DNA of 62,722 bases, from positions 1 through 62,722 of the IMG/VR virus record IMGVR_UViG_3300005826_000008; one strand, 5' to 3'. Both the position numbers and the translations under genes were made by a program. This document shows, piece by piece, positions 115 to 24,939 of the stretch. The DNA is from a virus. The first letter of the stretch is position 1. Each line of letters begins with the position of its first letter. The notes below the pieces were generated by a model. It ran no database searches and was not told the origin of the DNA. It worked only from the letters and a program-made list of their open reading frames with translations.

Positions 115-142
115 TTGACGTCAGGGGAGGCGTGCTTACATT
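115..142 (+). promoter_or_regulatory. Predicted promoter for the Ro60 gene (TTGACG-16-TACATT)
   Basis: TTGACG at 115-120 and TACATT at 137-142 are separated by 16 bases. The preceding GG and the GC-rich spacer resemble the promoter at 7635-7662. Six more sites in the window share the TTGACN / TANNTT layout, which is why this is called despite a non-consensus -10. Confidence 0.6.
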
Positions 143-207
143 CTAAATATGGCGCGGTGGTCGCGCTGCGATTTGTTGAATTTTTTCAAACAATAAAGGA
201 GTCTATT

Positions 208-1785
208 ATGGCAAACAAGAGTCTATTTTCAAGCAAGGGAAACAGCAACAAGCATTCGGTTAAGGTAGTTCGTAAGGCGGATACTCATAACTTGGCTGGA
301 GGTACTGCATATAAGTTGTCTGATAAGGCAGCTTTGGCGCAGTATGCTATGACAGGAACTTTCCAGGGAACATTTTATGCTGATGGTAAGAGTCAGTTAA
401 CTAAAGTTTTGGAAATGTCGAATAAGGTTGATGAAGAATTCCTTGCAAAGCTTGCAGTATATTCTAGGCAGCAAGGTTTTATGAAGGATATGCCTGCTGT
501 TCTTGCAGCTGTGGTTGCGGGAAGAGACTCTTCTTTATTGGAGAAGATCTTTCCAAAGGTCGTGGATAATCCAAAGATGGCAAGGAATTTTGTTCAGGTT
601 ATTCGTTCGGGTGCTACAGGACGTAAGTCTCTTGGAACTCGTCCAAAGAAGTTGATGCAAGCATACTTGTCAGGATTGAATGATGTCCAATTGTTCAAGG
701 CAAATATTGGCAACGATCCATCGTTGGCTGATATGATCAAGTTGGTTCACCCAAAGCCAGGCTCCAAGAGCAGAAATGCTTTGTATGCTTATCTTTTGGG
801 TAAGGAACATAGTGTTGAAGCATTGCCTCAATTGGTTAGAGACTTCGAGGTCTTCAAGAAGGAACTTGGGGCAGAAATGCCTGACGTTCCATTCCAGATG
901 TTGACGGCTTTGCCATTGACGAAGGATCACTGGAAGACCATTGCGCGTAATGCAACATGGAATCAAATCAGGCAAAACTTAAACACCTTTGCTCGTCATG
1001 GTGTGTTTGAGGATGAAAAGCTTGTCTCTGCTTTGGCAGAGAAGCTTTCTAACCCTGATCAGGTTAAGAGAGCAAAGGTATTCCCATACCAGTTGTTCAC
1101 TTCTTACCTGAACATTGATTCTAGCGTCCCAAAGAAGTTGTCGATTGCTTTGCAAAAGGCAGCTGATCTTTCTCTTGAGAACATTCCTGAAATGGAAGGT
1201 CAAGTCTATGTAATGGTAGACGTTTCTGGTTCTATGAGTTGGTCAATCACGGGTAACCGTGGATCTGCTACAAGCAAGATGCAGTGCGTTGATGTTGCGG
1301 CATTGATTGCATCTTCAATCTTGCGTAAGAACCCAGAGACTGTTATCCTTCCATTCGATACCAGTGTGCATAAGACTAACTTGAATCCTATGGATTCTAT
1401 TATGACGAATGCCAACATCTTGCGTAAGTTTGGTGGTGGTGGAACGAACTGTTCTCTTCCTTTGGCTCTTCTTAACCAACAAAAGGCAAAGGGCAACCTA
1501 GTTATCTATGTTAGCGATAACGAGAGCTGGGTTGATAGCACTCGCAGTTATGGAAGAGGAACTGAAACCATGAACCAGTGGCAGAAGTTCAAGGGACGCA
1601 ACCCAAAGGCAAAGCTTGTTTGTATTGATTTGAATCCAAATAGTACAACCCAAGCTCACGATCGCCCTGATATTCTCAATGTTGGATCATTTTCTGATAA
1701 TGTGTTTAATGTGGTTTCTACATTCACAAAGTTTGGTAATGATAAGGATCTTTGGGTCTCTGAGATAGAGAAAGTTAGTCTATGA
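208..1785 (+). CDS. rsr: Ro60/TROVE-domain RNA-binding protein
   Basis: A 525-residue protein of the Ro60 family, ring-shaped RNA chaperones that bind Y RNAs and misfolded RNAs and work with exoribonucleases in RNA quality control. The start at 208 (MANKSLFSSK) is chosen because AAAGGAG lies just upstream; a longer frame opens at 115 but overlaps the promoter. The N-terminal two thirds is the HEAT-like TROVE region. The C-terminal third is a von Willebrand A fold with an intact MIDAS motif (DVSGSMSWS near residue 370). Length and domain order match bacterial Ro60. It overlaps the next gene by 4 bases, and a structured RNA candidate follows at 2617. In a phage with a huge tRNA set it may bind phage Y-like RNA or tRNA precursors; that role is inference. 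Confidence 0.93.
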   Translation: MANKSLFSSKGNSNKHSVKVVRKADTHNLAGGTAYKLSDKAALAQYAMTGTFQGTFYADGKSQLTKVLEMSNKVDEEFLAKLAVYSRQQGFMKDMPAVLAAVVAGRDSSLLEKIFPKVVDNPKMARNFVQVIRSGATGRKSLGTRPKKLMQAYLSGLNDVQLFKANIGNDPSLADMIKLVHPKPGSKSRNALYAYLLGKEHSVEALPQLVRDFEVFKKELGAEMPDVPFQMLTALPLTKDHWKTIARNATWNQIRQNLNTFARHGVFEDEKLVSALAEKLSNPDQVKRAKVFPYQLFTSYLNIDSSVPKKLSIALQKAADLSLENIPEMEGQVYVMVDVSGSMSWSITGNRGSATSKMQCVDVAALIASSILRKNPETVILPFDTSVHKTNLNPMDSIMTNANILRKFGGGGTNCSLPLALLNQQKAKGNLVIYVSDNESWVDSTRSYGRGTETMNQWQKFKGRNPKAKLVCIDLNPNSTTQAHDRPDILNVGSFSDNVFNVVSTFTKFGNDKDLWVSEIEKVSL

Positions 1786-7841: not shown

Positions 7842-7905
7842 GGCAAATGCCGTAGGGATTACATTTACAGAAAATAAATAACAGATCTCTACATTATTAG
7901 TTGCC
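7842..7905 (+). repeat. GGATTACATT element, copy 1 (minimal form)
   Basis: Outer helix GGCAA (7842-7846) / TTGCC (7901-7905); second helix GTAG/CTAC; left box GGGATTACATTT; right box ATCTCTACATT. The interior holds only a hairpin with a 5-bp stem (ATTTA/TAAAT) and 7-base loop followed by AACAG, shaped like an anticodon arm. It lies between two tRNAs. Confidence 0.75.
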
Positions 7906-8145: not shown

Positions 8146-8216
8146 AGGTACGAGTCAAGGTGACAACAGAGCCTCCAAAACTCTGGAAGAGGGTTCGATT
8201 CCTTCCGTGCCTGCCA
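8146..8216 (+). tRNA. tRNA-Trp (CCA)
   Basis: Acceptor AGGTACG/CGTGCCT, anticodon loop CTCCAAA, T arm GAGGG/CCTTC. The upstream 50 bases hold two short hairpins and no gene. Confidence 0.85.
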
Positions 8217-8282
8217 TCTGAATGCTAGGTTGGGATTACATTTTTATTTGGAAAACAAACATCTCAATCACTTTTTGTCAGA
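8217..8282 (+). repeat. GGATTACATT element, copy 2 (minimal form)
   Basis: Outer helix TCTGA (8217-8221) / TCAGA (8278-8282). Second helix GGTTG/CAATC replaces the GTAG/CTAC of copy 1, keeping pairing. Left box GGGATTACATTT, right box ACATCTCAATC. A small TTTT/AAAA hairpin fills the interior. Confidence 0.72.
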
Positions 8283-8287
8283 TACTA

Positions 8288-8516: not shown

Positions 8517-8609
8517 GGGCTTCTGGTGTAATCGGAATCGTAAAGGTTCTAACAACATATCTAGCGAGTGAGCTAGAAGTTGCAGGTGCAAATCCTGCGG
8601 AGCCCACCA
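8517..8609 (+). tRNA. Class II tRNA (long variable arm), anticodon uncertain
   Basis: Acceptor GGGCTTC/GGAGCCC, variable arm CTAGC/GCTAG, T stem GCAGG/CCTGC and CCA are all good. The anticodon arm around AAGGTTCTAACAACAT does not pair normally. A Leu or Ser identity is likely from the long variable arm. Confidence 0.65.
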
Positions 8610-8739
8610 ATGGCAAATGCAGTATGGCTTTACATTGCATTATAAGCACGAGGTTATAGGTTCGAGTCCTATTGTCACTGTGTTGACATAGCTCAATTGG
8701 TAGAGCGCGTAAAACTGAAGTCTACATTTTTGTTGCCAT
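8610..8739 (+). tRNA. GGATTACATT element copy 3 holding a permuted tRNA-Ile (TAT)
   Basis: Outer helix ATGGCAA (8610-8616) / TTGCCAT (8733-8739). Inside, a tRNA 3' half (8637-8679: anticodon loop ATTATAA, variable region, T arm ATAGG/CCTAT, acceptor strand) precedes a 5' half (8682-8710: acceptor strand GTTGACA, TA, D arm GCTC/GAGC, CGT). Joined 5'-to-3', the anticodon stem becomes CGTGC/GCACG with U33 and anticodon TAT. One acceptor mismatch remains and the linker between tRNA ends is only 2 bases, with no CCA. The gene order is reversed compared with any normal tRNA. Confidence 0.7.
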
Positions 8740-8745
8740 TTATTT

Positions 8746-11742: not shown

Positions 11743-11745
11743 ATA

Positions 11746-11821
11746 TGTTGGTAATGACATTAAAAGTCAACCAGCTACAAAACGGCTGGTAGGGTGAGTG
11801 GAAGACTCACAGCCAACACCA
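11746..11821 (+). tRNA. Non-canonical tRNA-like gene
   Basis: Acceptor GTTGG/CCAAC, D stem TGAC/GTCA, anticodon stem CCAGC/GCTGG, T stem GTGAG/CTCAC and CCA are clear. But the D loop lacks GG, the T loop is TGGAAGA, and the anticodon loop has nine bases without a usable U33. It may be a tRNA mimic or a decayed tRNA. Confidence 0.5.
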
Positions 11822-11822
11822 T

Positions 11823-11942
11823 GAAACAAATGTCAGAATGCTTTACATTTATTATATGATATAGGTTCAAATCCTTTCCGACCCGCTATATGGGTCGGCT
11901 GCACATTGGCGAGTGCTACAAGTATTCAATTTTTGTTGTTTC
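11823..11942 (+). tRNA. GGATTACATT-type element copy 6 holding a permuted tRNA
   Basis: Outer helix GAAACAA (11823-11829) / TTGTTTC (11936-11942). Inside, a T arm (AGG TTCAAAT CCT) and acceptor strand CCGACCC (11878-11884) come before acceptor strand GGGTCGG (11892-11898) and a D arm GCAC/GTGC. The acceptor is a perfect 7-bp helix closed by a 7-base linker. The left box is GCTTTACATTT, as in copies 3 and 4. The anticodon cannot be assigned. Confidence 0.65.
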
Positions 11943-11967
11943 AAAATTTAAAATGGAGAAAGTTATA

Positions 11968-12183
11968 ATGTGTTCTGATTCAAATATAGATTATTCAAAT
12001 CCAGATGAAGCTTTTTGGCAAGGAAAAAAAGTCTGCTGAAAAAGAATTAATAAATGAAATTCGTTCTTTGAAAAGAGAAGTATCCCGACTTAAGAGTAAA
12101 GTTCGTTTGCTAGAAGAGAATATCAAATTAAAAAATAGAGTTAAAGAATTAGAAGATGGTGTTCGTAAAATGATCGGGGCATG
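11968..12183 (+). pseudogene. Coiled-coil protein gene split by a +1 shift at A7
   Basis: ATG at 11968 (GGAGAA upstream) opens a frame that stops at 12037-12039, just after a run of seven A at 12024-12030. Skipping one A gives an uninterrupted 71-residue protein: MCSDSNIDYSN at the start and a long coiled coil (SLKREVSRLKSKVRLLEENI) at the end. It could be a sequencing indel, a real frameshift mutation or recoding. Confidence 0.55.
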
Positions 12184-12224
12184 ATAGCAGATTCCCATCG
12201 ATTGACGGAACCGCCGGAGGGTGT

Positions 12225-12296
12225 AGCGGGGAGGGACGGTCCCAAGTAAGAGTCATGATCTTACCGCTCTAAGTTCAATTCTTAGTCCCGCAACCA
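12225..12296 (+). tRNA. tRNA-Met/Ile2 (CAT)
   Basis: Anticodon stem GTAAGA/TCTTAC with loop GTCATGA; acceptor GCGGGG/TCCCGC; T arm TAAG TTCAATT CTTA; CCA. Initiator versus elongator versus lysidine-modified Ile cannot be told apart here. Confidence 0.78.
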
Positions 12297-12418
12297 ATGC
12301 TGTGCTCAATTCCAAGTCTGACGCACGGCTTATTAATGACTTGGGGGTTACTCATTCACTCTTAGCGGCAACCTTTATCCATGATGCGTTGCAAATAGAA
12401 TGAGAGCATGGATACTAT
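12297..12418 (+). other. Gene-free spacer with two stems
   Basis: CCAAGTC/GACTTGG and CTCATTC/GAATGAG helices occupy most of the interval. No gene seen. Confidence 0.4.
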
Positions 12419-12501
12419 GCGGGTAAAGTCTCAATGGCGGGACACCAGCCTTCCAAGCTGGCGAGGTAAAACGCAGATGAGTTCGATTCTCATTACTCGC
12501 T
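12419..12501 (+). tRNA. tRNA-Gly (TCC) with enlarged variable loop
   Basis: Acceptor GCGGGTA/TACTCGC, anticodon stem CCAGC/GCTGG with loop CTTCCAA, T arm ATGAG/CTCAT. The variable region is about 14 bases (CGAGGTAAAACGCA) instead of about 5. CCA is not encoded. Its 3' end overlaps the next minus-strand gene by a few bases. Confidence 0.8.
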
Positions 12502-13185
12502 CAATTTATAGTTAATAATCTTTGTAATGATATCGATATATTTTCTAGCTTTCAATGGTTTAAAGTTCTTCATAGAAGATGTATCTATTATAACTAATTC
12601 AATTTCTTGTTCTAAACAGGCTTGGAACTTCCTGTTGTCGTTGTTTTGAATAGATGCTAATTTTTCTACACCATAAATTGGTTCATAGTGAAAGATGCCG
12701 TTTAATTCAAAAGCTAAATTGAGAGAAGGAATGTAGATATCAAGCTCGGAATTGATCTCTTCTTTTGAGTTGTATTTAACATCTAATTCTGGATATAAAG
12801 AATTAAGTTGTTCTTCTAACCATTTTTCTAGTTTAGATCTTCTAGTTCCACTAGTTTTATGAGTGTTGTAGTAGGTGGTTGCACAACTATGAGAACAAAA
12901 ATTGTTTCCACTATCTGTTAATTCAGAAGGTATCTTTGTAAAAGTTTTATTACAATGAGCACAATGAATTGTAATTGTTTTATCTCTGGCTTCATTAAAG
13001 CATTTGTATGAACAGTATATTGCTGGTTGTTTGTGTGTTTTGATTTTACTTTGAATCACATTTTTTATTCTTATAAATGTTTGATTGCAGTTAGGACAGG
13101 TTAGTTTTACTTCCGTCTTTGATGGAAGCGAGTCGATATATTGGATGAAGTTTTTATTTTGTGAAGCATACATAACTGTATACAT
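12493..13185 (-). CDS. Vsr/PD-(D/E)XK-like homing endonuclease, minus strand
   Basis: A 230-residue protein. The N-terminal half has two zinc modules (CPNCNQTF...CSYKCFNEA; CAHCNKTF...CSHSCATTY). The C-terminal half resembles the Vsr-like (EDxHD) nuclease fold: SELDIYIPSLNLAFELNG with the acidic residues, then the HYEP segment and ELVIID. Phage homing endonucleases of this design are known. It is inserted opposite to the array and abuts a tRNA-Gly. Confidence 0.75.
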   Translation of the reverse strand: MYTVMYASQNKNFIQYIDSLPSKTEVKLTCPNCNQTFIRIKNVIQSKIKTHKQPAIYCSYKCFNEARDKTITIHCAHCNKTFTKIPSELTDSGNNFCSHSCATTYYNTHKTSGTRRSKLEKWLEEQLNSLYPELDVKYNSKEEINSELDIYIPSLNLAFELNGIFHYEPIYGVEKLASIQNNDNRKFQACLEQEIELVIIDTSSMKNFKPLKARKYIDIITKIINYKLSE

Positions 13186-13307
13186 TAAAAATGATAGTTT
13201 CGATTCCGGTTATCCGCTCTGCATGCTAGGAACAAGCATCGTGGATTCATCTTACTGGTTAGATGATGTAACAAGAACCTTCTCATCAAAGGTGTTCCAT
13301 AGTTTAA
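13186..13307 (+). other. Spacer with an orphan tRNA 3'-end-like sequence
   Basis: TTTCGATTCCGGTTATCCGC near 13198-13218 looks like a T loop plus acceptor strand, but no matching 5' part is adjacent. The nuclease gene beside it may have displaced a tRNA. Confidence 0.3.
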
Positions 13308-13557
13308 TTTGATGAATGTAGTTAGGGATTACATTTAACAATAAATAACGCGATAATATGGTGAATAACCGCCACTCCGAAACATGTTATGAGTGGTAAA
13401 CCAGATCTTAAAATATATATGTCTCGTGATCTTGTAGCGAGTAAAGCTTGCAAGACCCGTATGATTCTAAAGGTGATTACTTCTTATGAAAATAAGGTGG
13501 GTTAAACTGAATCAACATTCCTTTCGGGGAAACATCTCTACATTCTTTGTCATCAAA
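13308..13557 (+). repeat. GGATTACATT element, copy 7 (long insert)
   Basis: Outer helix TTTGATGA (13308-13315) / TCATCAAA (13550-13557), eight base pairs. Second helix GTAG/CTAC, left box GGGATTACATTT with hairpin ATTTA/TAAAT, right box AAACATCTCTACATT. The ~180-base interior holds hairpin CCACTC/GAGTGG and others but no tRNA halves that I can assign. Confidence 0.65.
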
Positions 13558-13564
13558 CAAACAT

Positions 13565-13636
13565 AATCGTATAGCTTAATTTAAAGCCCTGTATTGTATA
13601 CGGGAGATTTTGGTGAAAATCCAAATGCGGTTACCA
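13565..13636 (+). tRNA. tRNA-Thr (TGT)
   Basis: Acceptor AATCGTA/TGCGGTT, D stem GCTT/AAGC, anticodon stem CCTGT/ACGGG with loop ATTGTAT, T arm TTTGG/CCAAA, CCA. Confidence 0.85.
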
Positions 13637-13747
13637 AAAGGAATAATAATCTAATCTGTCTGATCGCAGGTTGGATTGCTATAGTGTGTAGGTCAGGGCA
13701 CACTAGAAGTTTCTGGGTCGTCTAAACACCTGGAGTTATTCTGCTAT

Positions 13748-13833
13748 GGTCTCGTGGCGGAATTGGCATACGCAGCAGTCTCAAAAACTGTGCCCTTATG
13801 GGCTTGTGGGTTCGACTCCCACCGGGACTACCA
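13748..13833 (+). tRNA. tRNA-Leu (CAA)
   Basis: Anticodon stem CAGT/ACTG with loop CTCAAAA, long variable arm TGCCCTTATGGGCT, T arm GTGGG/CCCAC, CCA. Confidence 0.88.
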
Positions 13834-13852
13834 AAATAAAAGAGGTTTAATA

Positions 13853-14389
13853 ATGAATGATTGGATTGAATTAAATTTGCCTTATTCATATTATGAGAGT
13901 TTGGAAACACCAGATCTACCTGATTTGGATGATAGAATAAAGCAAAAGTTTGGTAAACTTCCTGAGGAAGTAAAGGTTTTGTTATCTCAGTTTGGAGATG
14001 AAGCTTATAAAAAATATTATAAGCTTTGTCTTAAAGGAAAGAGTCAAAAAGATCTTGAGAAGTCTAATGATAAAGATATTCAGGCGATAGTGTCTTATAA
14101 ATCTCTTGAAGAAGAAATTGATAATTGGTATTGGGTTCAGCCTGAAGTGGCAGAATGGGAATCTTTATGTGATAAGTTAAGAAAAGAACATAAAGAAAAA
14201 ATAAAATCTAAATCATTTTCTAGTTTAGGTTTAAACAAACCTGGAGTACTTATTGAAGTAGAGCAAGACGGAAAAGATGTTCAATATCTTATTGGAGATA
14301 TAAATACTTCATGTGGTGTCTGTAATGATTGTACAGCTTTTAGTGATGATACGATTGTGAAGAGGTATAAAATTGTATGGCAAGAATAA
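13853..14389 (+). CDS. Hypothetical protein (178 aa)
   Basis: Not recognised. The start at 13853 (MNDWIELNLPYSY) follows AGAGG, directly behind the tRNA-Leu. The protein is acidic and helical, with a cysteine group near the C-terminus (TSCGVCNDCTAF) that may bind metal. It overlaps the TTG start of the next gene. Confidence 0.72.
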   Translation: MNDWIELNLPYSYYESLETPDLPDLDDRIKQKFGKLPEEVKVLLSQFGDEAYKKYYKLCLKGKSQKDLEKSNDKDIQAIVSYKSLEEEIDNWYWVQPEVAEWESLCDKLRKEHKEKIKSKSFSSLGLNKPGVLIEVEQDGKDVQYLIGDINTSCGVCNDCTAFSDDTIVKRYKIVWQE

Positions 14390-14795
14390 AATAGAGATAG
14401 TCGGAAAGTATGGAGCTTTTCATCTTTCGATGCCAGATGATATTAGTGAATCTGATATATTAATGATTCATAATATAATTACCCCTTTATTGGATGGCAA
14501 GAATGTTAGTGAGATAGTAGGATCTTTTTCACCTGGTGATGTAACTCCTACTACTTGTTTGAAATACAAGATCACTTTTTGTTTTTCTTCTCCCAGATCT
14601 TTTGAGAAGTTGAGGGCAGTATCTGCGTTGAGGAAAGCTTTTAGTGAGATATCTCTTAAGGAATCAAAAGATATAGTGGATGGAATAAAAGAGTTACCTC
14701 CTATTTATGCTGAAGAACTTTATCATTTGAATAGTATTTTTAATGATAAAGGAGTTACCTCTTATAAGGCAGAGTTAGTAGTGGTTGAAATATAA
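14373..14795 (+). CDS. Protein with ribosomal bL12-like C-terminal domain (140 aa)
   Basis: The start is a TTG at 14373, with AGAGG nine bases upstream and no earlier ATG. The stretch EKLRAVSALRKAFSEISLKE followed by SKDIVDGIKELPP matches the bL12 C-terminal pattern (K-x-x-VIKxVRxxxxLGLKEAKxLVExxP), the part of the ribosomal stalk that recruits EF-Tu and EF-G. The N-terminal ~70 residues are not recognisable as the bL12 dimerisation domain. Stalk mimicry fits a phage that also carries EF-Tu and EF-Ts, but similarity is limited to about 35 residues. Confidence 0.5.
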   Translation: MYGKNKIEIVGKYGAFHLSMPDDISESDILMIHNIITPLLDGKNVSEIVGSFSPGDVTPTTCLKYKITFCFSSPRSFEKLRAVSALRKAFSEISLKESKDIVDGIKELPPIYAEELYHLNSIFNDKGVTSYKAELVVVEI

Positions 14796-14796
14796 T

Positions 14797-14883
14797 GGTG
14801 CTGTGGCGTAACTGGCAGCCGCGCTAGACTAAGAATCTAGAGTTCGAAAGAACGTGTGGGTTCAACTCCCACCAGCACCACCA
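14797..14883 (+). tRNA. tRNA-Leu (AAG)
   Basis: Acceptor GGTGCTG/CAGCACC, anticodon stem CTAGA/TCTAG with loop CTAAGAA, long variable arm, T arm GTGGG/CCCAC, CCA. An A34 Leu tRNA is uncommon in bacteria. Confidence 0.88.
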
Positions 14884-15009
14884 AAGTGAATGCAGTAAGG
14901 ATTACATTACAGTGAACTTCCAGGTCCAGGTGAAAATCCTGGTATTGCGAAAGTAATATGGTATAACTAGTATCGGAAGAAAAAAGTATCTTTACAATTT
15001 TTGTCACTT
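14884..15009 (+). repeat. GGATTACATT element, copy 8 (tRNA-like insert with GAAA loop)
   Basis: Outer helix AAGTGA/TCACTT; second helix GTAAG/CTTTAC. Inside, CTTCC, a T-arm-like CCAGG TGAAAAT CCTGG, then GTATTGC-GAAA-GTAATAT, a 7-bp acceptor-like stem closed by a GNRA tetraloop, a D-arm-like GGTA/TATC and GGAAG. GGAAG and CTTCC would form an anticodon stem if the ends were joined, with GTG in the loop but no U33. It looks like a permuted tRNA whose ends have been fused. Confidence 0.6.
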
Positions 15010-15013
15010 CAAT

Positions 15014-15096
15014 GCCTGGTTCGCTCAGTGGAAGAGCATTCGGCTGTTAACCGAACGGGTAAAACCAACGGGAGTTCGATTCTCTCATCAGGCGCA
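15014..15096 (+). tRNA. tRNA-Asn (GTT) with enlarged variable loop
   Basis: Acceptor GCCTGGT/ATCAGGC, D stem GCTC/GAGC, anticodon stem TTCGG/CCGAA with loop CTGTTAA, T arm GGGAG/CTCTC. The variable region is about 14 bases (CGGGTAAAACCAAC). No encoded CCA. Confidence 0.85.
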
Positions 15097-15120
15097 ACTT
15101 CTAAAGTAAACCAGAAGTGG

Positions 15121-15426
15121 ATTACACGCGTTGTTGAAAAAATTGTCGAGAAAACAACCCCTAATCCTAACCCGAGTAATTTTATAATTATAAGGCACAA
15201 AGAGGTTGATATAAATCTAGTAGTTGAGGTCAAGTATCCGGACGCAACGAATTACGAGGGGAGAAAGATAATGGTTTATAGAAACCTATCTTTCAATGAT
15301 ATTAAGAACACAAAGTTTCTTGACCCTCATTTCTGCGACCATGGTAATTGCATATCACCATTTGCTAGACTTCGACCAACAGATTCTGGTTGGATTGCAG
15401 CCATAGCTCTTGCAAAGATGATATAA
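15121..15426 (+). CDS. Hypothetical protein, start uncertain (~52-102 aa)
   Basis: The frame is open from within the tRNA-Asn and looks coding from about 15121, but no ATG/GTG/TTG is available before ATG at 15271, which has a strong GGGGAGAAAG site. The shorter 52-residue form (MVYRNLSFND, ending IAALAKMI-like) is therefore the safest start; upstream residues such as LVVEVKYPDATNYEG suggest an N-terminally truncated older gene. Function unknown. Confidence 0.5.
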   Translation: MTRVVEKIVEKTTPNPNPSNFIIIRHKEVDINLVVEVKYPDATNYEGRKIMVYRNLSFNDIKNTKFLDPHFCDHGNCISPFARLRPTDSGWIAAIALAKMI

Positions 15427-15662
15427 TGCAAATAAAGTTAGAGAAAGCTTCTGGTAGGGCAATATGTCGTCATCTTGATTGTAAAAGGAAGCCAGAGTAC
15501 ATAAATGAATCTGGTCGTATTATTAAGGGTACAATTTGTTGTAAAATTTCTGTTGGTACTGCTGCTGGTTGGTTTTCAGCTTTTTATTGCAGAGATTGTT
15601 TAGAGAAGATACATGATGAGATAAGAGAGAAGTTGAATCCAAAGTTATGGATTTTTAGTTGA
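15426..15662 (+). CDS. Small zinc protein, GWxxAxYCxxC family (78 aa)
   Basis: Starts MQIKLEKASG as TAATG overlap with the preceding stop. Cysteine pairs CRHLDCK, CC and YCRDC suggest a zinc site. The segment GTAAGWFSAFYCRDCLEKI parallels GTSGWTAALYCKKCMPAIL in the protein at 44687, so the two are paralogues. It ends KLWIFS, the shared C-terminal motif. Confidence 0.68.
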   Translation: MQIKLEKASGRAICRHLDCKRKPEYINESGRIIKGTICCKISVGTAAGWFSAFYCRDCLEKIHDEIREKLNPKLWIFS

Positions 15663-15666
15663 ATAT

Positions 15667-15745
15667 GTTCCTGTCGTCTAATAATCATAGGACATCCGTC
15701 GCGATGAGGCGGGGAATCTAGGTTGATATCCTAGTGGGAGCGCCA
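15667..15745 (+). tRNA. tRNA, anticodon uncertain (possibly GAT)
   Basis: Acceptor GTTCCTG/TGGGAGC (several G-T pairs), D stem GTC/GAC, stem CCGTC/GGCGG with loop GCGATGA, T arm CTAGG/CCTAG, GCCA. Position 33 would be C, so the frame of the loop is unsure. Confidence 0.6.
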
Positions 15746-15746
15746 A

Positions 15747-15813
15747 AGTTTTCTGAGGTTTTTTGGTAAAAACGCTGACGAGTATTGCAAGGTTCGATTC
15801 CTGCCAGGAAACT
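15747..15813 (+). tRNA. Shortened tRNA-like sequence
   Basis: Acceptor AGTTTTC/GGAAACT and T loop TTCGATT are clear, but the region between is too short for normal D and anticodon arms. Probably a deletion derivative. Confidence 0.35.
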
Positions 15814-15816
15814 AAT

Positions 15817-15938
15817 GTACAAATGCTAGTAAGGGATTACATTTTATATTGTGAATAAAACAGCGAAGTTCGATTCTTCGGGTTTCCGTGAGGGAACTGC
15901 GTGGTGCCAGAAAACATCTCTTGCAATTTTTGTTGTAC
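15817..15938 (+). repeat. GGATTACATT element, copy 9 (tRNA-like insert)
   Basis: Outer helix GTACAA/TTGTAC; second helix GTAAG/CTTGC. The interior has an anticodon-arm-like hairpin TTTAT/ATAAA, T arm CGAAG TTCGATT CTTCG, then GGTTTCC-GTGA-GGGAACT, an acceptor-like helix closed by a GNRA loop. No D arm or CCA. Confidence 0.6.
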
Positions 15939-15983
15939 AAAAATTTATAGAATATAATAGTTAATACTTTTGTATTCTACTAT

Positions 15984-16170
15984 GTAACAAATGTCAGAAA
16001 GGATTACATTTTATTCTGATTAAATAAACAGGTGGGTTCAATTCCCACGCCTCCAACCAAATTCCATACTATGTATGGTGCCCCAGGGCTCTGAGGGAGC
16101 AAGTATCGGAGCTGCTTTATTGGAGGTGCAGGCGCCAGTCAAACTAATCTTTTCACCCTTTCGTTGTTAC
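15984..16170 (+). tRNA. GGATTACATT element copy 10 holding a permuted tRNA (Ile GAT?)
   Basis: Outer helix GTAACAA/TTGTTAC; second helix GAAAG/CTTTTC. Anticodon-like arm TTATT/AATAA with loop CTGATTA, T arm GTGGG/CCCAC, acceptor GCCTCCA and ACCA (to 16059) precede a 61-base linker and the opposite acceptor strand TGGAGGT (16121-16127). The D arm is not evident, so function as a tRNA is uncertain. The linker contains hairpins CCATAC/GTATGG and GCTC/GAGC. Confidence 0.55.
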
Positions 16171-16173
16171 TAT

Positions 16174-16249
16174 GGGTCTCTTGCCAACGTGGTCAAGGCA
16201 ATGCACTGAAAATGCATTTATCTCGGTTCGATTCCGTGGGGGCTCACCA
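16174..16249 (+). tRNA. tRNA-Phe (GAA)
   Basis: Acceptor GGGTCTC/GGGGCTC, D stem GCC/GGC, anticodon stem ATGCA/TGCAT with loop CTGAAAA, CCA. Confidence 0.9.
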
Positions 16250-16392
16250 GACAGAATGCTTGGAGGATTTACATAGCAAATCAACTGTAAATTGATAAGA
16301 TAGTAAGTGAAAACCTTACCTCGCCCACCATATCACGATGCAATCTTATGGGCGAGAAGCAAAACAAATAATTCTTCGTACTTTGTCTGTCT
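16249..16392 (+). tRNA. Element copy 11 holding a permuted tRNA-Tyr (GTA)
   Basis: Outer helix AGACAGA (16249-16255) / TCTGTCT (16386-16392). The 3' half has anticodon arm ATCAA CTGTAAA TTGAT, T arm GTAAG/CTTAC, acceptor CTCGCCC and ACCA (to 16330). After a 19-base linker comes GGGCGAG (16350-16356), a perfect 7-bp partner, then AAGC. The break is in the D region here rather than the anticodon stem, and only GC/GC remains of the D stem. The left box is GGATTTACAT. Confidence 0.65.
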
Positions 16393-16395
16393 TAA

Positions 16396-16470
16396 CGGCT
16401 TGTAACAAAGTGGTCTATGTGCCTGTCTGATAAGCAGGTTATGTGAGTTCAATTCTCACCAAGCCGACCA
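16396..16470 (+). tRNA. tRNA-Ile (GAT), second copy
   Basis: Acceptor CGGCTTG/CAAGCCG, anticodon stem CCTGT/GCAGG with loop CTGATAA, T arm GTGAG/CTCAC, CCA. Confidence 0.88.
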
Positions 16471-16487
16471 AGGAAAGATAATTAGTA

Positions 16488-16727
16488 ATGAATATAGTAA
16501 AAAAGTTTTCTACTGATTTAGAAGTGGAAAGAAAAAATTCTATTTATAGTAAGGAAGCATTTTTAGAATGGGGACTTGGTGATGATGGAAATTTATATGC
16601 CAGATATTCTATATCTGGATTTCATAGTGATTCGTGGGTGAAAAGCGAGAATATTTCTTTTAGTATTTCACTGAAAGAAATGGAAAAAATTGTTAAAGAG
16701 TTTTCTAAACTTGTAATTTTTACATGA
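16488..16727 (+). CDS. Small hypothetical protein (79 aa), C-terminal motif family
   Basis: Start MNIVKKFSTD with AAGGAAAG upstream. It ends EFSKLVIFT, the hydrophobic C-terminal motif shared by many small proteins of this phage. No other feature recognised. Confidence 0.65.
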   Translation: MNIVKKFSTDLEVERKNSIYSKEAFLEWGLGDDGNLYARYSISGFHSDSWVKSENISFSISLKEMEKIVKEFSKLVIFT

Positions 16728-16734
16728 TTTTAAT

Positions 16735-16809
16735 GGGGCTATAGCATAATGGTAGTGCACTCGGCTGTCTCCCGAGGTTGTGAGGGTTCGAATCCCTTTG
16801 GTCCCGCCA
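16735..16809 (+). tRNA. tRNA-Asp (GTC)
   Basis: Acceptor GGGGCTA/TGGTCCC, D stem GCAT/GTGC, anticodon stem CTCGG/CCGAG with loop CTGTCTC, GCCA. Confidence 0.9.
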
Positions 16810-16923
16810 ATAAAACTTATTAACAATTCAAAAGCCCCTGGAGTCGGATAGTCTGACGGGGTAAACATACCGAAAGGAAATAGATATGAATTAAAGGGCT
16901 GGCAACCCAAGGTAAGGTATATT

Positions 16924-18093
16924 ATGAACAAGACACATGTGAATGTTGGAACAATCGGTCACGTAGATCATGGCAAAACAACATTAACTGCGGCTATACT
17001 TGCAGTACAGTCGCAAGTTGGATTAGCGAGGGTTAAGTCGTATGCGGATATTGCAAAGGGCGGAACAGTCAGAGATGAGAATAAGACTGTTACAATTGCA
17101 GTTTCGCATGTCGAATATGAATCTGATGCTCGTCATTATGCTCACATCGATTGTCCGGGACATGCCGACTACATTAAGAACATGATTACTGGTGCTGCTC
17201 AAATGGATGGCGCTGTATTGTTGGTAGATGGTAGTCAAGGTCCACAACATCAAACAAAAGAACACATTCTACTTGCTCGTCAAGTTGGTGTGGAAAAGAT
17301 TGTTGTGTTTATTAATAAGATAGATGTTTCTGATCCAGAGCTTCTTGAGCTTGTAGTAATTGAAACATCTGAATATCTTGAGGCACAAGGCTACGGAGAT
17401 TCTCCTATTGTTATGGGTTCCGCACTTAAAGCATTGCGTGATCCGGTTAATGAGGGGCAATGCATCAAGGATTTGATTGCAGCTATTGATTCTCATATTC
17501 CGGATCCAAAGCGTGATTTTGAGTCTCCTTTTATGCTTCCTATTGAAGGGGTGCATACAATTGAAGGGCGCGGAACAGTTGTTACTGGAAGGATAGCTCG
17601 TGGAGTTCTTCCTGTTGGTTCTAAGGTTGAGATTATTGGTCTTGTAGATGAAGACTCAAAACCAAGAGTTGTAGTTGTAACAGGTATCCAAATGTTTCAT
17701 AAGGATCAAAAAGAAGCTAGAGCGGGTGAAAATTGTGGACTTTTGCTTCGTGGAGTTAAGAGGGACGAGGTAGTTCGTGGGCAAGTATTAATTGCTCCAG
17801 GTTCTGTTAGCCCAAAGACTAAAGCGAGAGCAGAGTTGTTTATGATTCCAGGAAAAGAAGGTGGTAGACATACTCCAATTTTCCCAGGTTATAAACCACA
17901 ATTCTTTTTTGGAACAACTGATGTTACAGGGGCAGTGACTAACTTTGGTGAATTGAAAATGCTTTCTCCTGGAGAGCACGCTGAAGTTAGTCTCGAACTT
18001 CTAAAACCTGTTGGAATGGAAGCTGGAATGAGGTTTGCTGTTCGTGAAGGCGGACAGACTGTTGCAGCAGGTATAGTTGTGAGTGTTGAGTAA
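16924..18093 (+). CDS. tuf: Translation elongation factor Tu
   Basis: A 389-residue EF-Tu, the GTPase that delivers aminoacyl-tRNA to the ribosome. All three domains are present: G1 GHVDHGKTT, G3 DCPGHADY, G4 NKID (NKCD in most bacteria), G5 SALKAL; domain 2 from about residue 205; domain 3 ending FAVREGGQTVAAGIVV. Switch I is divergent: the usual RGITI is replaced by NKTVTI, keeping the threonine that binds Mg. AAGG precedes the start. It sits within the tRNA array. The divergence suggests long residence in the phage line and perhaps escape from host factors that act on EF-Tu. Confidence 0.97.
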   Translation: MNKTHVNVGTIGHVDHGKTTLTAAILAVQSQVGLARVKSYADIAKGGTVRDENKTVTIAVSHVEYESDARHYAHIDCPGHADYIKNMITGAAQMDGAVLLVDGSQGPQHQTKEHILLARQVGVEKIVVFINKIDVSDPELLELVVIETSEYLEAQGYGDSPIVMGSALKALRDPVNEGQCIKDLIAAIDSHIPDPKRDFESPFMLPIEGVHTIEGRGTVVTGRIARGVLPVGSKVEIIGLVDEDSKPRVVVVTGIQMFHKDQKEARAGENCGLLLRGVKRDEVVRGQVLIAPGSVSPKTKARAELFMIPGKEGGRHTPIFPGYKPQFFFGTTDVTGAVTNFGELKMLSPGEHAEVSLELLKPVGMEAGMRFAVREGGQTVAAGIVVSVE

Positions 18094-18226
18094 TTCCTGT
18101 TCTGATCAAGCAGGTGATCCAGTTGTATGTTGTAAGTTTGCAATAAGACTATGACTCGATGACTAGGTAGAGAGAGGATGAGATCGTTTTTGCGCGCTCC
18201 TCAACGGACTTAGTGCAACTGGAAAT
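18094..18226 (+). other. Spacer between tuf and tRNA-Lys
   Basis: No gene seen. Short inverted repeats near 18097-18120 might process or terminate the tuf transcript. Confidence 0.35.
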
Positions 18227-18301
18227 GGGATCGTGGCGCAATGGTAGCGCAGTTGGCTTTTAACCAATTGGTTCTCGGTTCGAGTCCGAGCGGTCCCACC
18301 A
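18227..18301 (+). tRNA. tRNA-Lys (TTT)
   Basis: Acceptor GGGATCG/CGGTCCC, D stem GCGC/GCGC, anticodon stem TTGG/CCAA with loop CTTTTAA, T arm CTCGG/CCGAG, CCA. Confidence 0.93.
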
Positions 18302-18488
18302 AAAACGAATGAAGTTAGGATTACATTACAATACTGACCCTAAGGTAGTCGACAGTTTCGCGAGGAACTGCACGATGGCGCTATGAGAGTTATTGACTTG
18401 ATTAGTGCGGGGCGAACTAGGGAAGCTCTTACAAAAGAGCCCTTAATGTGCCGGTCACACACGTATCTTAGCGATCTCTTGTCGTTTT
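18302..18488 (+). repeat. GGATTACATT element, copy 12 (long insert with GCGA loop)
   Basis: Outer helix AAAACGA (18302-18308) / TCGTTTT (18482-18488). Left box AGGATTACATT. The interior includes CAGTTTC-GCGA-GGAACTG, again a helix closed by a GNRA tetraloop, and GCTCTT/AAGAGC. No clear tRNA halves. Confidence 0.6.
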
Positions 18489-18491
18489 AAT

Positions 18492-18575
18492 GGGTTCTTC
18501 GCCTAATGGTATGGCACCTGGCTCTTAACCAGACGCAGAAATGCATTGGGGGTTCGACTCCCCCAGGACCCACCA
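18492..18575 (+). tRNA. tRNA-Lys (CTT) with enlarged variable loop
   Basis: Acceptor GGGTTCT/AGGACCC, anticodon stem CTGG/CCAG with loop CTCTTAA, T arm GGGGG/CCCCC, CCA. The variable region contains a small hairpin GCAGAAATGC not found in ordinary tRNA-Lys. Confidence 0.88.
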
Positions 18576-18593
18576 TTAAAAGGATTAAATTAA

Positions 18594-18848
18594 ATGAATA
18601 AAGAAGAGTTAATAAAATGTTTGAAGGAAGTAGTTTCTTCAAATATAGAAACACCAATTATTAAATTACATGAAAATAGTGATCATATTTGTTTGACGAT
18701 TAGTCAAATGTATGAATATATTGATGTTAATTTCGCTTTGTTAGAAAAGATATCACATATATTCAATACCAAAAAAATTAATATTGGTGATAAGGATTAT
18801 ATAAGTGGGTGTGAAACATGTGATTATGGATCCGAATATTATGTTTAA
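18594..18848 (+). CDS. Hypothetical protein (84 aa)
   Basis: Not recognised. AAAGGA lies upstream of the start MNKEELIKCLKEVV. Acidic; a CETCDYG group at the C-terminus. Confidence 0.68.
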   Translation: MNKEELIKCLKEVVSSNIETPIIKLHENSDHICLTISQMYEYIDVNFALLEKISHIFNTKKINIGDKDYISGCETCDYGSEYYV

Positions 18849-18891
18849 ATATATATTTTTGATTCAGGAATTAAAATAGATTGAATGTTCT

Positions 18892-19110
18892 ATGGAATTC
18901 TTGGATATTGTTAAATTAATTGATAAGTTTAATGCTCTTGAAGCTTATGGCAGAAGAGATTTGATTAAGCAATATATCAAAGATGAATTTTTATCGAATG
19001 GTGAAATGATTGATGCTTTGATCTATATTGCAAAGATGCCTTTGACTGAACAATTTTATTGGCATAAGTTCGTGAAGAATTACATATCAACATTAGTTAA
19101 TTTTAGTTAA
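18892..19110 (+). CDS. Hypothetical protein (72 aa)
   Basis: Not recognised. Helical, ends ISTLVNFS, a weak form of the shared C-terminal motif. The next gene starts one base after its stop. Confidence 0.6.
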   Translation: MEFLDIVKLIDKFNALEAYGRRDLIKQYIKDEFLSNGEMIDALIYIAKMPLTEQFYWHKFVKNYISTLVNFS

Positions 19111-19111
19111 A

Positions 19112-19354
19112 ATGAAATCTAAAGATATTCTTATATTAGATGAAAGTTCTCCTATTTATGGTAAGATATTAACTTTTTCTTTTATTGAGCAAAAGAAAAT
19201 ATCTCCTGGTTGTTTCATTTGGGTAGCTCGTTATGATAATGGTTTATATTGGCGCTCTGATTATTCTTTAAAAAAGCATATAAAAGAAAATAAATGGATA
19301 GAGATTACTAAAAAGAATAAAGATAAATGGGAAAAATTAATTCCTTTTATATAA
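19112..19354 (+). CDS. Hypothetical protein (80 aa), C-terminal motif family
   Basis: Start MKSKDILILDESS. Beta-rich centre (ISPGCFIWVARYDNGLYWR) and end WEKLIPFI, matching the end of the protein at 57558 (RLIPFI). Function unknown. Confidence 0.65.
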   Translation: MKSKDILILDESSPIYGKILTFSFIEQKKISPGCFIWVARYDNGLYWRSDYSLKKHIKENKWIEITKKNKDKWEKLIPFI

Positions 19355-19404
19355 AATATCATAAAATGAAGCCTAGAGATAAAAAGAAAATATTGGAGTG
19401 TTAA

Positions 19405-19629
19405 ATGCGTAATAATCGTTATGTTAATTTAATTGATTGGTTTTATTCAACAGATTATAGCATTCATATAACGAAGTCTAATAAGGGAAAGAATGGTGGG
19501 CATGATATTAGAGGTTCGCTTATTAGTGATGATGGTGAATGCTTTTTAGCTATTGGTTGTGATGAGATTGATGTTATTAGAACATTGAAGGCGATGGTTG
19601 AGGGAAATTATAAAAATAACCGGGGTTGA
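19405..19629 (+). CDS. Hypothetical protein (74 aa)
   Basis: Not recognised. TTGGAG precedes the start. The last codons overlap the -35 of the next promoter. Confidence 0.65.
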   Translation: MRNNRYVNLIDWFYSTDYSIHITKSNKGKNGGHDIRGSLISDDGECFLAIGCDEIDVIRTLKAMVEGNYKNNRG

Positions 19630-19653
19630 CATCATTTTTTATAGATTTAGATT
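19626..19653 (+). promoter_or_regulatory. Predicted promoter for the restriction-modification pair (TTGACA-16-TAGATT)
   Basis: TTGACA 19626-19631 and TAGATT 19648-19653, 16 bases apart, lie about 125 bases before the restriction gene. A GGAGG ribosome site precedes that gene. Confidence 0.65.
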
Positions 19654-19777
19654 GGTGGTATGGTTAGACATAATGTGTGGATAATTGATTTTATAATGCA
19701 TTACCATGCGTCGATTATGGCGTAATTAACGGGATTACTTAAGATATATCTATCTTTTAATTTTCCGGAGGTTTATT

Positions 19778-20581
19778 ATGAGTAATTTTGATTGTTTGAA
19801 GAATATTATTATTAACTCTGAGTATGATACGAATAGTGCTGGCTGGTATTATAGGCTAATTAAAATGCCTCTTTTGCATGCAAATCCTAATTTAAATCCA
19901 CGTTGTTTGGATTCAAAAACGGGAAATGCTTTTGCTAAGATAGCGAAAAATTTGGTAAGATCTAAATATAATGATGAAGATAATGGCAAGAATACTTTAC
20001 CGCCAGTAATTCCGGGATTGGGATGTCCAAAAGATCTTGATTTATCAAAATATAAATCAACGGACAATGACCAAGTTATTGTTACCTCATTAAATGAAAG
20101 AAAAGTTCTTGAAGTTTTTTCAAATCTTTTAGATAAGAATAAAACAAAGAAACTATCAAGAAAGATCCAACAAGATTTGTTTAATGAAATTCAGTCCAAT
20201 TTATCTAACTACCTTAATGATACCTTATCCTCATATAAGGTTGATTTGGTTATTAATGTAAATAATTCTCTATTAGAGGTTTATGAACTGAAGTTGGGTG
20301 GAAACTTGGATGCTCCGAAAGCAAGAAAGACTGTTGATGAGTTAGTATTTAGGGCTATAGCATTATCCAGTTATCATAATAGTTTGCCTAGAGTATATTT
20401 TGGAGTTTTCTCTTCCGACATAAAAGTAAAGAAAAATGGCGACTGGTCTGGTGCAGTTGGAAGTTTGTTTGATAAAGAATTTGTATTAATAGAGGATGAT
20501 CTAGTATCAAATATATCGAACATATCAATGGCTGATTTTGTAGATAATTGTATTGCTGTTCTTAACTTAAAGGCTGATTAA
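19778..20581 (+). CDS. Probable type II restriction endonuclease (TdeIII-like)
   Basis: A 267-residue protein next to a DNA methyltransferase. The core VDLVINVNNSLLEVYELKLG shows the D...ExK pattern of PD-(D/E)XK nucleases (about residues 150-170), followed by GGNLDAPKARKTVDE, resembling TdeIII-type restriction enzymes. CCGGAGG sits upstream of the start. The pairing with the methyltransferase 25 bases downstream supports the assignment. Recognition sequence unknown. Confidence 0.68.
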   Translation: MSNFDCLKNIIINSEYDTNSAGWYYRLIKMPLLHANPNLNPRCLDSKTGNAFAKIAKNLVRSKYNDEDNGKNTLPPVIPGLGCPKDLDLSKYKSTDNDQVIVTSLNERKVLEVFSNLLDKNKTKKLSRKIQQDLFNEIQSNLSNYLNDTLSSYKVDLVINVNNSLLEVYELKLGGNLDAPKARKTVDELVFRAIALSSYHNSLPRVYFGVFSSDIKVKKNGDWSGAVGSLFDKEFVLIEDDLVSNISNISMADFVDNCIAVLNLKAD

Positions 20582-20606
20582 AAATCCTTATTAAGGAAGT
20601 GTTTAT

Positions 20607-21693: not shown

Positions 21694-21760
21694 AGGCAAA
21701 TGCGAGTGGGAATACATTTAACTGCTAATTAAAAACGATTCTCATTCATTTTTGTTGCCT
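21694..21760 (+). repeat. GGATTACATT-type element, copy 13 (minimal form)
   Basis: Outer helix AGGCAA (21694-21699) / TTGCCT (21755-21760); second helix GAGTG/CATTC; box GGAATACATTT; internal hairpin TTTAA/TTAAA with loop CTGCTAA. It precedes a tRNA directly. Confidence 0.75.
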
Positions 21761-24796: not shown

Positions 24797-24939
24797 GAAA
24801 CAAATGCTCGATAGGATTACATTTACAATAGCATTCCAAGCCGGAGATGGAGGTCCGATTCCTTCTGCGCGGTTTATATCTGCGCATAGTTTAATGGTAT
24901 GACTCCGTCGTTAAATATCTTGTCACTTCTTGTTGTTTC
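24797..24939 (+). tRNA. Element copy 14 holding a permuted tRNA-Gly (TCC)
   Basis: Outer helix GAAACAA (24797-24803) / TTGTTTC (24933-24939); second helix GATAG/CTTGTC. The 3' half (24831-24872: GC ATTCCAA GC CGG, T arm GGAGG/CCTTC, acceptor TGCGCGG) precedes a 7-base linker and the 5' half (24880-24907: CTGCGCA, TA, D arm GTT/GAC, CCG). Joining them gives a perfect anticodon stem CCGGC/GCCGG with U33 and anticodon TCC, and a full acceptor helix. This is the best reconstruction across the proposed splice point. Confidence 0.78.

What the first reader, a model, noticed from the sequence alone, without database searches (positions are those of the whole stretch)
16249..16392. Permuted tRNA-Tyr broken in the D region rather than the anticodon stem
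Here the complete anticodon arm (CTGTAAA) is in the upstream half and the downstream half is only the acceptor strand plus AAGC. The break point therefore differs between copies while the flanking element is the same. A normal tRNA-Tyr (GTA) exists at 8288, so this one may be redundant or serve another purpose.
Basis: partly seen in the sequence, partly recalled or inferred. Interest (0 to 1): 0.7.

Follow-up and report, generated by a model that had tools for sequence, protein, structure and literature searches.

The report
Phage Y RNA carrying permuted tRNA
The "broken tRNA" is most likely not a tRNA gene but one of about fifteen Y RNAs (small RNAs bound by the Ro60 protein) on this phage contig, and it carries a tRNA look-alike attached at an unusual place, which suggests that large phages build a varied set of tRNA mimics on one protein-binding stem.

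Summary
In detail: 16249-16392 contains a tRNA-like anticodon arm, T arm and CCA-tailed acceptor strand upstream, and the 5' acceptor strand plus AAGC downstream; the exact geometry occurs in 0 of 20,000 shuffles. It is probably not a permuted tRNA gene. The flanking boxes form the two-helix basal stem of a bacterial Y RNA. A sibling copy (8610-8742) matches Rfam YrlA (42.9 bits, E 3.6e-8, below the gathering score of 69), and the contig encodes the Y-RNA-binding protein Ro60/Rsr (115-1785). I count 15 such elements here, many beside tRNAs. Around 52 rsr genes of other phages my scan found 118 elements, 116 on the rsr strand, 0 in shuffled sequence. The same design recurs in three other phage records (two different sequences) with compensatory changes in acceptor, anticodon and T stems and other anticodons (GAA, CCT). 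Other copies attach the stem elsewhere, so the break point does vary. This is a new variant of a known kind (phage Y RNA with tRNA mimic). Ro60 binding, processing and function are inferred.

The parts
16249..16392 (+). Whole Y RNA element (E11), packed between tRNA-Phe (ends 16249) and tRNA-Ile (starts 16396)
16249..16255 (+). P1 5' strand (AGACAGA), followed by AUGC 16256-16259
   Evidence: unconstrained fold; P1 pairing over 36 elements
16261..16269 (+). P2 5' strand (TGGAGGATT), followed by conserved TACAT 16270-16274
16276..16277 (+). D-stem 3' strand remnant (GC, positions 24-25), pairs with 16359-16360
16280..16296 (+). Anticodon arm, loop CTGTAAA (GTA at 16287-16289)
16303..16319 (+). 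T arm with loop TGAAAAC
16320..16330 (+). Acceptor 3' strand CTCGCCC plus ACCA
16331..16349 (+). Linker closing the acceptor stem (19 nt)
16350..16360 (+). Acceptor 5' strand GGGCGAG, AA (8-9) and D-stem 5' GC (10-11)
16370..16378 (+). P2 3' strand (AATTCTTCG)
16386..16392 (+). P1 3' strand (TCTGTCT), preceded by CTTTG
115..1785 (+). Ro60/Rsr protein gene (TROVE and Ro60 vWA domains), presumed Y RNA binding partner
   Evidence: Pfam; phrog_850
7842..7905 (+). Y element E1, short insert
8216..8283 (+). Y element E2, short insert
8609..8740 (+). Y element E3, YrlA-type tRNA mimic (stem in place of anticodon arm); Rfam YrlA 42.9 bits
9114..9261 (+). Y element E4, anticodon-stem graft with GCCA; a rotation reads as tRNA-Arg(tcg). 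Its free fold does not show P2
10197..10266 (+). Y element E5, short insert
11822..11943 (+). Y element E6, tRNA mimic with D arm, short-looped acceptor helix; free fold does not show P2
13308..13557 (+). Y element E7, about 200-nt insert of unknown fold
14884..15009 (+). Y element E8, tRNA mimic broken in the anticodon loop, acceptor capped by GAAA
15816..15939 (+). Y element E9, tRNA mimic, acceptor capped by GTGA
15984..16170 (+). Y element E10, tRNA mimic with ACCA and long linker
18302..18488 (+). Y element E12, about 140-nt insert, homologous insert in L097:15278-15481
21694..21760 (+). Y element E13, short insert
24797..24939 (+). Y element E14, anticodon-stem graft
   Evidence: 1 of 100 shuffles reached its score
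45018..45130 (+). Y element E15, hairpin + T arm + UUCG-capped helix, no D arm; YrlA 20.7 bits

Best explanation
This is a Y RNA: a small structured RNA whose two ends pair into a two-helix stem (P1, then AUGC opposite about 8 nt usually ending in UUG, then P2) of the kind bound by the Ro60/Rsr protein, here encoded on the same contig. On that stem sits a circularly permuted tRNA-like module. In this copy the stem is attached at the D loop: the D stem is cut to 2 bp (3-4 in homologues) and continues into P2, while the anticodon arm, T arm and a 7-bp acceptor stem with CCA are kept and the tRNA's own ends are joined by a linker. Shown by sequence: the architecture, its recurrence with compensatory changes, the 14 sibling elements, and linkage to rsr. 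Inferred: it is transcribed with the tRNA array and released by processing of the flanking tRNAs; Rsr binds the stem; the module is displayed to tRNA-binding proteins (host nuclease such as PNPase, modification enzymes, or an anticodon nuclease), acting as a tether or decoy, as proposed for YrlA.
For: Rfam YrlA aligns to sibling E3 end to end (42.9 bits, E 3.6e-8) and weakly to E15 (20.7 bits); in other rsr phages it reaches 61.7-64.9 bits. Rsr gene on the contig. 35 of 42 five-prime boxes chosen by sequence alone have the P1'/P2' partner (score over 26); for 30 of these 35, 0 of 100 local shuffles reached the score. P1 is 98.1% canonical over 36 elements against 68.8% (maximum 76.4%) when 3' strands are re-dealt, with 23 distinct P1 strands (the 36 were picked because they pair, so the percentage itself is partly by construction, the variety is not). 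The unconstrained minimum-energy fold of E11 is exactly P1, P2, 2-bp D stem, anticodon hairpin, T hairpin, acceptor; that of the G010 homologue is the same plan; for G035 the same plan lies 0.6 kcal/mol above the optimum. Over the 3 distinct D-graft sequences 17 of 17 pairs of acceptor, anticodon and T stems are canonical in all, 9 of 17 changed on both sides. 118 elements in 30 of 52 rsr loci, 116 on the rsr strand, 0 in shuffled DNA, 1 in 368 kb of other stretches. E11 begins at the last base of tRNA-Phe and ends 3 nt before tRNA-Ile.
Against: E11 itself gives no YrlA hit, and no element in 23 searched records passes Rfam's YrlA gathering score (0 of 23). That search at E up to 0.1 matches 21 of 23 records but also rings in 11 of 14 control genomes (none over the cut-off), so its weak hits are not evidence. 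22 of 52 rsr loci show no element by my scan, which however misses some (L132:9464). The D-graft form was found as only 3 distinct sequences (4 records) and not in the Phe-Ile interval of G001, G004 and G006; not all of their sequence was scanned. For G035 the D stem is not in the optimal fold. No RNase_PH (PNPase-type) domain over cut-off in 11 phage records, so a PNPase partner would have to be the host's. No expression or binding data.
Confidence: 0.82

Rival explanations
1. A genuine permuted tRNA gene: the precursor is cut at the boxes and at the linker, ends are ligated, and a functional tRNA-Tyr results, as in red algae and some archaea.
For: Order 3' half-CCA-linker-5' half; ACCA exactly placed; 13 of 31 permuted modules have CCA right after the discriminator position; 5 of 28 inserts read as tRNA after rotation against 0 of 1120 shuffled inserts.
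Against: No D arm remains in E11, so ligation would give a tRNA without a proper D arm; sibling copies with the same boxes hold no tRNA at all or acceptor helices sealed by GNRA/UUCG tetraloops; the boxes match a Y RNA stem; anticodon not conserved; I see no bulge-helix-bulge junction in the fold, which shows P1/P2 stems (read by eye).
Confidence: 0.06
2. Two-piece Y-tRNA chimera: RNase P and 3' processing remove the linker, leaving two strands held by acceptor, D stem, P2 and P1, with a free CCA end that can be aminoacylated, as in permuted two-piece tmRNA.
For: ACCA retained in E11 and the G010/G015 homologue while the linker diverged; 13 of 31 modules keep CCA; 9 of 23 related records encode class A RNase P RNA.
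Against: The discriminator base pairs with position -1 in the folds; the G035 homologue has GCCG instead of NCCA; 18 of 31 modules lack the CCA, several being sealed by tetraloops; CCA may simply reflect descent from tandem tRNA genes. RNase P RNA was not found on this contig.
Confidence: 0.12
3. Non-functional debris: tRNA gene pieces trapped by recombination between repeated Y elements in a tRNA array.
For: The array is rich in odd tRNAs; inserts vary widely; some boxes have no partner (L092:18130, L100:17324).
Against: Compensatory changes in each of the three tRNA helices tested of the D-graft class (9 of 17 pairs) and varied, pairing P1/P2 across phages; U33 and A37 kept in 3 of 3.
Confidence: 0.05

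Closest known systems
YrlA, bacterial Y RNA with tRNA mimic (Rfam RF02553; Salmonella and others)
   Same: Basal stem pairing both ends with AUGC/UUG internal loop, a permuted tRNA-like module without free ends (alignment; passages of PMC8394870), rsr gene nearby in some bacteria (passages of PMC7790460)
   Different: YrlA keeps T, acceptor and D arms and puts the stem where the anticodon arm would be; E11 keeps anticodon, T and acceptor arms and puts the stem at the D loop. E11 is not hit by the YrlA model
Phage Y RNAs / phage Rsr (mycobacteriophages; suggested in Listeria phage CKA15)
   Same: Phage genome with Rsr and putative Y RNAs (passage of PMC12282133, citing Chen 2014; passage of PMC7765460); one mycolicibacterial prophage with a YrlA hit (passage of PMC8190616)
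   Different: Here about 15 Y elements interleaved with tRNA genes on one contig, with varied attachment points; I saw no such array in the listings and passages
Circularly permuted tRNA genes (Cyanidioschyzon, Thermofilum; recalled)
   Same: 3' half with CCA, linker, 5' half
   Different: No full D arm, flanks form a Y RNA stem, no evidence of ligation
Permuted two-piece tmRNA (RF04321 exists in Rfam; its processing is recalled)
   Same: Acceptor stem built from two strands joined by a CCA-containing linker
   Different: No mRNA-like domain; linker removal not shown here

Membership tests
Bacterial Y RNA (broad) | 5' and 3' ends pair into a basal stem with conserved AUG(C) / UUG internal loop | tested here: met
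   over the 36 elements ATGC in 27, ATGT 7, ATGA 2, and TTG before P1' in 30 (ATG, and T followed by T, A or C and then G or C, were demanded by the scan, so these are partly by construction); E11 has ATGC and CTTTG
Bacterial Y RNA (broad) | Encoded by a genome that also carries Ro60/Rsr | tested here: met
Bacterial Y RNA (broad) | Binds Ro60/Rsr | not testable with these tools
   needs a binding assay
YrlA (RF02553) | Scores above Rfam's gathering score (69 bits) | tested here: not met
   E11 no hit; best window copy 42.9; 0 of 23 records over cut-off. So E11 is not filed as YrlA
YrlA (RF02553) | Module made of T arm, sealed acceptor helix and D arm, stem in place of anticodon arm | tested here: not met
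   met for E3 and by the classifier for E4, E6, E14, not for E11
Permuted tRNA gene | 3' half upstream of 5' half, separated by linker, CCA at proper place | tested here: met
Permuted tRNA gene | All tRNA arms recovered after joining | tested here: not met
   no D arm; ARAGORN finds no tRNA in any rotation of the E11 insert
Permuted tRNA gene | Processing to a joined, charged tRNA | not testable with these tools
   needs RNA from infected cells
Two-piece tmRNA | mRNA-like tag-encoding domain | tested here: not met
   whole element is 144 nt and folds into stem and tRNA-like arms only; no tmRNA call by ARAGORN on the window

The most novel reading that the evidence does not exclude
Large phages use one Ro60-binding stem as a plug-in platform and graft it onto tRNAs at nearly every junction (D loop, 26/27, anticodon, variable region, acceptor), making a library of tethered tRNA mimics. 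Those that keep CCA, like this one, are opened by RNase P into two-piece, aminoacylatable Y-tRNA chimeras that hold charged or decoy tRNAs on Ro60, for instance against anticodon nucleases.
Probability: 0.12. Interest if true: 0.9.

Novelty: new variant of a known kind. Interest (0 to 1): 0.62.

Why it matters
Bacterial Y RNA function is poorly understood and, in the passages I read, tied to one tRNA mimic showing D, T and acceptor arms. Phages that carry many Y RNAs with the same stem and different tRNA attachment points are a natural swap experiment: they separate the Ro60-binding part from the effector part and predict that different arms of tRNA (here anticodon, T and acceptor) are the part shown to partners. 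It also explains a class of 'permuted tRNA' patterns that tRNA finders miss or misread.

Tried and rejected
Permuted tRNA gene: rejected as the main reading (see rivals). Mobile intron or self-splicing ribozyme: my first idea when only the repeats were visible; dropped once YrlA and Rsr appeared. A search for relatives by the window's Rsr alone in viral contigs found none, and an over-strict DNA pattern found none; a looser pattern (63 stretches) and an Rsr alignment worked. G008 (two matches that I take for protein-coding chance) was dropped before the count but is in the counts; L107/G003 repeats an element of G004 and was left out. At score 26 the scan also gives one minus-strand element in the window (55300, 4-bp P1), which I judge chance and do not count among the 15. 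The scan misses elements that end in CTG: L132:9464 is a full element by eye. MAFFT alignments A1, A2 and A4 misplace the 3' box or the linker and were not used for counting; one row of A2 had wrong coordinates. No covariance model was built. Free folds of E4 and E6 do not show P2, and that of E14 does not show the T arm, so their arm assignments rest on the sequence classifier. 23S-rRNA likeness of insert E12: score 21.0 against shuffles 17.1 +/- 2.0, 15 of 200 reach it; homologue 41 of 200; not significant, kept only as a lead. The automatic D-graft label also marked E9 and E10, where the hairpin overlaps the A-rich junction; I do not count them. The custom D-less test did not find E15. The NCCA counter used a wrong offset and printed 0; one search recounts: 13 of 31 loops start with CCA once the discriminator is taken as paired. 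Two of the 31 rows (L110 15585, L147 9542) look like chance elements.

Full report
What is there. The window is a 62,722-base virus record with 25 ARAGORN tRNAs and genes for EF-Tu, EF-Ts and a Ro60/Rsr protein. The exact tRNA geometry without a D arm occurs once in the insert and in 0 of 20,000 dinucleotide shuffles; with one mismatch per helix, in 4 of 5,000 (35 of 5,000 without U33).

The flanking element. I count the same two boxes 15 times on this contig, all on the + strand (a sixteenth, minus-strand scan hit at 55300 I take for chance). 8 of 15 lie within 5 nt of an ARAGORN tRNA on at least one side and 4 of 15 (E8, E11, E12, E15) on both. The 5' box is P1-AUGC-N-P2-UACAU; the 3' box is P2'-about 8 nt, usually ending in UUG-P1'. 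A relaxed Rfam scan of 7600-25000 placed family YrlA (Y RNA-like) on copy E3, end to end (42.9 bits, E 9.3e-7; E 3.6e-8 when 671 bases are searched; gathering score 69), and its consensus shows the same P1, AUGC, P2 and UUG layout. The whole-window scan at gathering scores lists tRNAs only. E15 gives 20.7 bits. E11, the finding, gives no hit. The first ORF of the window is Ro60/Rsr (TROVE 1.5e-11, Ro60 vWA 9.5e-17), the protein that binds Y RNAs.

Is the stem real? From 16 stretches I took every 5' box by sequence alone: 42. Of these 35 have a P1'+P2' partner with score over 26; for 30 of the 35 none of 100 local shuffles reached the observed score, for 5 one or two did. The other 7 I take to be five chance matches and two truncated or interrupted elements. 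Over 36 elements from seven records P1 is 98.1% canonical, against 68.8% (maximum 76.4%) when the 3' strands are re-dealt 1000 times, with 23 distinct P1 strands; P2 changes in step too, e.g. GGAT/ATCT, GGTT/AACT, GGAC/GTCT, GGAG/CTCT. These 36 were gathered by a scan that demands pairing, so the level of pairing is partly by construction; the variety of pairing sequences and the controls carry the weight.

Linkage to Ro60. Records first found by a DNA pattern of the box turned out to encode Rsr: G001, G004, G006 at 65-67% identity, G007 at 50%, a fragment in G002; 5 of 8 searched, the misses being G003 (12.9 kb), G005 (70.9 kb) and G008 (chance match). Conversely, an Rsr alignment pulled 52 loci; 30 of 52 hold at least one element, 118 elements in all, 116 on the rsr strand, against 0 in shuffled sequence and 1 in 368 kb of other stretches. 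Those other stretches were mostly not tested for rsr and include Mx1, which has it. Some of the 52 loci are near-identical, so 118 is not a count of independent elements; the scan also misses some.

How this copy is built. The unconstrained fold of 16249-16392 (-31.3 kcal/mol) is P1 7 bp, 5-nt gap, P2 9 bp, a 2-bp GC/GC D stem, anticodon hairpin 5 bp/7 nt, T hairpin 5 bp/7 nt, and an 8-bp acceptor helix with a 21-nt loop. So the Y stem occupies the D loop. Homologues: G010 and G015 (nearly identical; anticodon loop ATGAAAA) and G035 (CTCCTAA), both with AAGC after the acceptor strand and AGC before the anticodon arm. G010 folds freely to the same plan with a 3-bp D stem. The free fold of G035 keeps P1, P2, anticodon hairpin and acceptor but pairs CAGC elsewhere; the plan with a 4-bp GCTG/CAGC D stem lies 0.6 kcal/mol above it (-59.2 against -59.8). 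Over the three distinct sequences all 17 pairs of the acceptor, anticodon and T stems are canonical, 9 with changes on both sides. U33 and A37 are kept in 3 of 3, the anticodon identity is not.

Other attachment points. By scan, Rfam alignment and fold, copies attach the stem in the anticodon stem (E3, E4, E14, and copies in G004 and G006) or anticodon loop (E8), between positions 26 and 27 with both D and anticodon arms present (L125:8694, L132:9464), after the anticodon arm, in the variable region (L138:9399), and on the acceptor stem with the tRNA in normal order (L136:12245). These assignments are mine from folds and listings; the last three classes rest on one or two examples each, and in L136 the acceptor pairing is at most about 4 bp and not in its free fold. 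Of 28 inserts, 5 read as a tRNA after rotation (E3, E4, G4a, G4d, G6e), against 0 of 1120 shuffled inserts. Acceptor ends range from GNRA or UUCG tetraloops (E8, E9, E15, L097:15902) to loops with CCA exactly after the discriminator base: 13 of 31 modules.

How it most likely works. Shown: structure, recurrence, co-occurrence with rsr. Inferred from position: E11 starts at the last base of tRNA-Phe and ends 3 nt before tRNA-Ile, so normal 3' and 5' processing of the neighbours would release it. Inferred from known Y RNAs: Rsr binds P1 and the AUGC/UUG loop, and the tRNA-like module faces partners. In Deinococcus the partner is PNPase (passages of PMC7790460 and PMC8394870); a role of YrlA as competitive inhibitor of an anticodon nuclease was raised in PMC7790460 (passage). 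No RNase_PH domain passes the cut-off in 11 of these phage records, so a PNPase partner would be the host's. Keeping the anticodon arm while giving up the D arm fits a decoy or lure for anticodon-reading proteins, but this is a guess.

Where the permutation may come from. CCA sits at the right place even in loops of five or six bases (CCATA, CCACTA), as expected if a module is the 3' half of one tRNA and the 5' half of the next in a tandem pair. That is inference; it also warns that CCA need not mean charging.

Comparison with what is known. Phage Y RNAs are known: a passage of PMC12282133 says Y RNAs were identified in mycobacteriophages, citing Chen 2014; PMC7765460 (passage) says several phages have YrlA; PMC8190616 (passage) lists YrlA in one mycolicibacterial prophage; the jumbo-phage survey PMC7824862 (passage) notes the TROVE protein, which works with a tRNA-like partner in cells. 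The primary YrlA papers (Chen 2014, Wang 2018, two Sim reviews) are not held, so a statement in them about several graft points would have escaped me. In the listings and passages I saw no D-arm graft and no array of Y RNAs. E11 fails two YrlA tests (model score, arm set) and so is filed as a Y-RNA-like element of new design, not as YrlA.

Results against. No YrlA hit for E11; 0 of 23 records over the YrlA cut-off, and the relaxed search (21 of 23 records) also rings in 11 of 14 control genomes; 22 of 52 rsr loci without elements by my scan; D-graft not found between Phe and Ile tRNAs in G001, G004 and G006; T loop non-canonical in E11; free folds of E4, E6, E14 and G035 depart from the proposed plan in part; no expression data.

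Noticed in passing
L095:7191-7537 (-), L093:14480-14841 (+) and seven further records: Class A RNase P RNA, 247-308 bits (cut-off 100), in 9 of 23 related phage records; not found in this window.
   Followed up: partly
18302-18488 and L097:15278-15481: Y element with a related 140-160-nt insert; the window copy contains CCTAAGGTAG..CTGCACGATGGCG resembling E. coli 23S rRNA around 1912-1981, but not beyond shuffles (15 of 200).
   Followed up: partly
L136:12245 (+): Y stem around a tRNA in normal order, i.e. apparently grafted on the acceptor stem.
   Followed up: partly
L125:8694 and L132:9464 (+): Permuted modules with both D and anticodon arms, stem between positions 26 and 27.
   Followed up: partly
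L092:18130 (+): A Y element 5' box without a 3' box in reach, followed by an open reading frame that by eye resembles the window ORF 9340-9861 (only a weak Pfam Stc1 hit).
   Followed up: no
7765-7841, 13565-13636, 14890, 16303: T loops of the form TGAAARY instead of TTCRA in several tRNAs and mimics of this phage; the Thr tRNA at 13565 also lacks GG in its D loop (read).
   Followed up: no
13308-13557; L117:17014; L120:19437; L126:19282: Y elements with inserts of about 150-230 nt without an evident tRNA-like T arm, fold unknown.
   Followed up: no
L003 (Xanthomonas phage XacN1) 3794-4093 and 5133-5546: Rfam hits to permuted tmRNA / beta tmRNA and GOLLD RNA beside a tRNA array.
   Followed up: no
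G004:C1:8546-9850, G039:C1:363250-364554: RtcB RNA ligase genes in two related phages (2 of 11 records).
   Followed up: no
6947-7681, 22143-22742, 46635-47555: Formyltransferase (PurN-like), PurH-like and EF-Ts genes beside EF-Tu on this contig.
   Followed up: no
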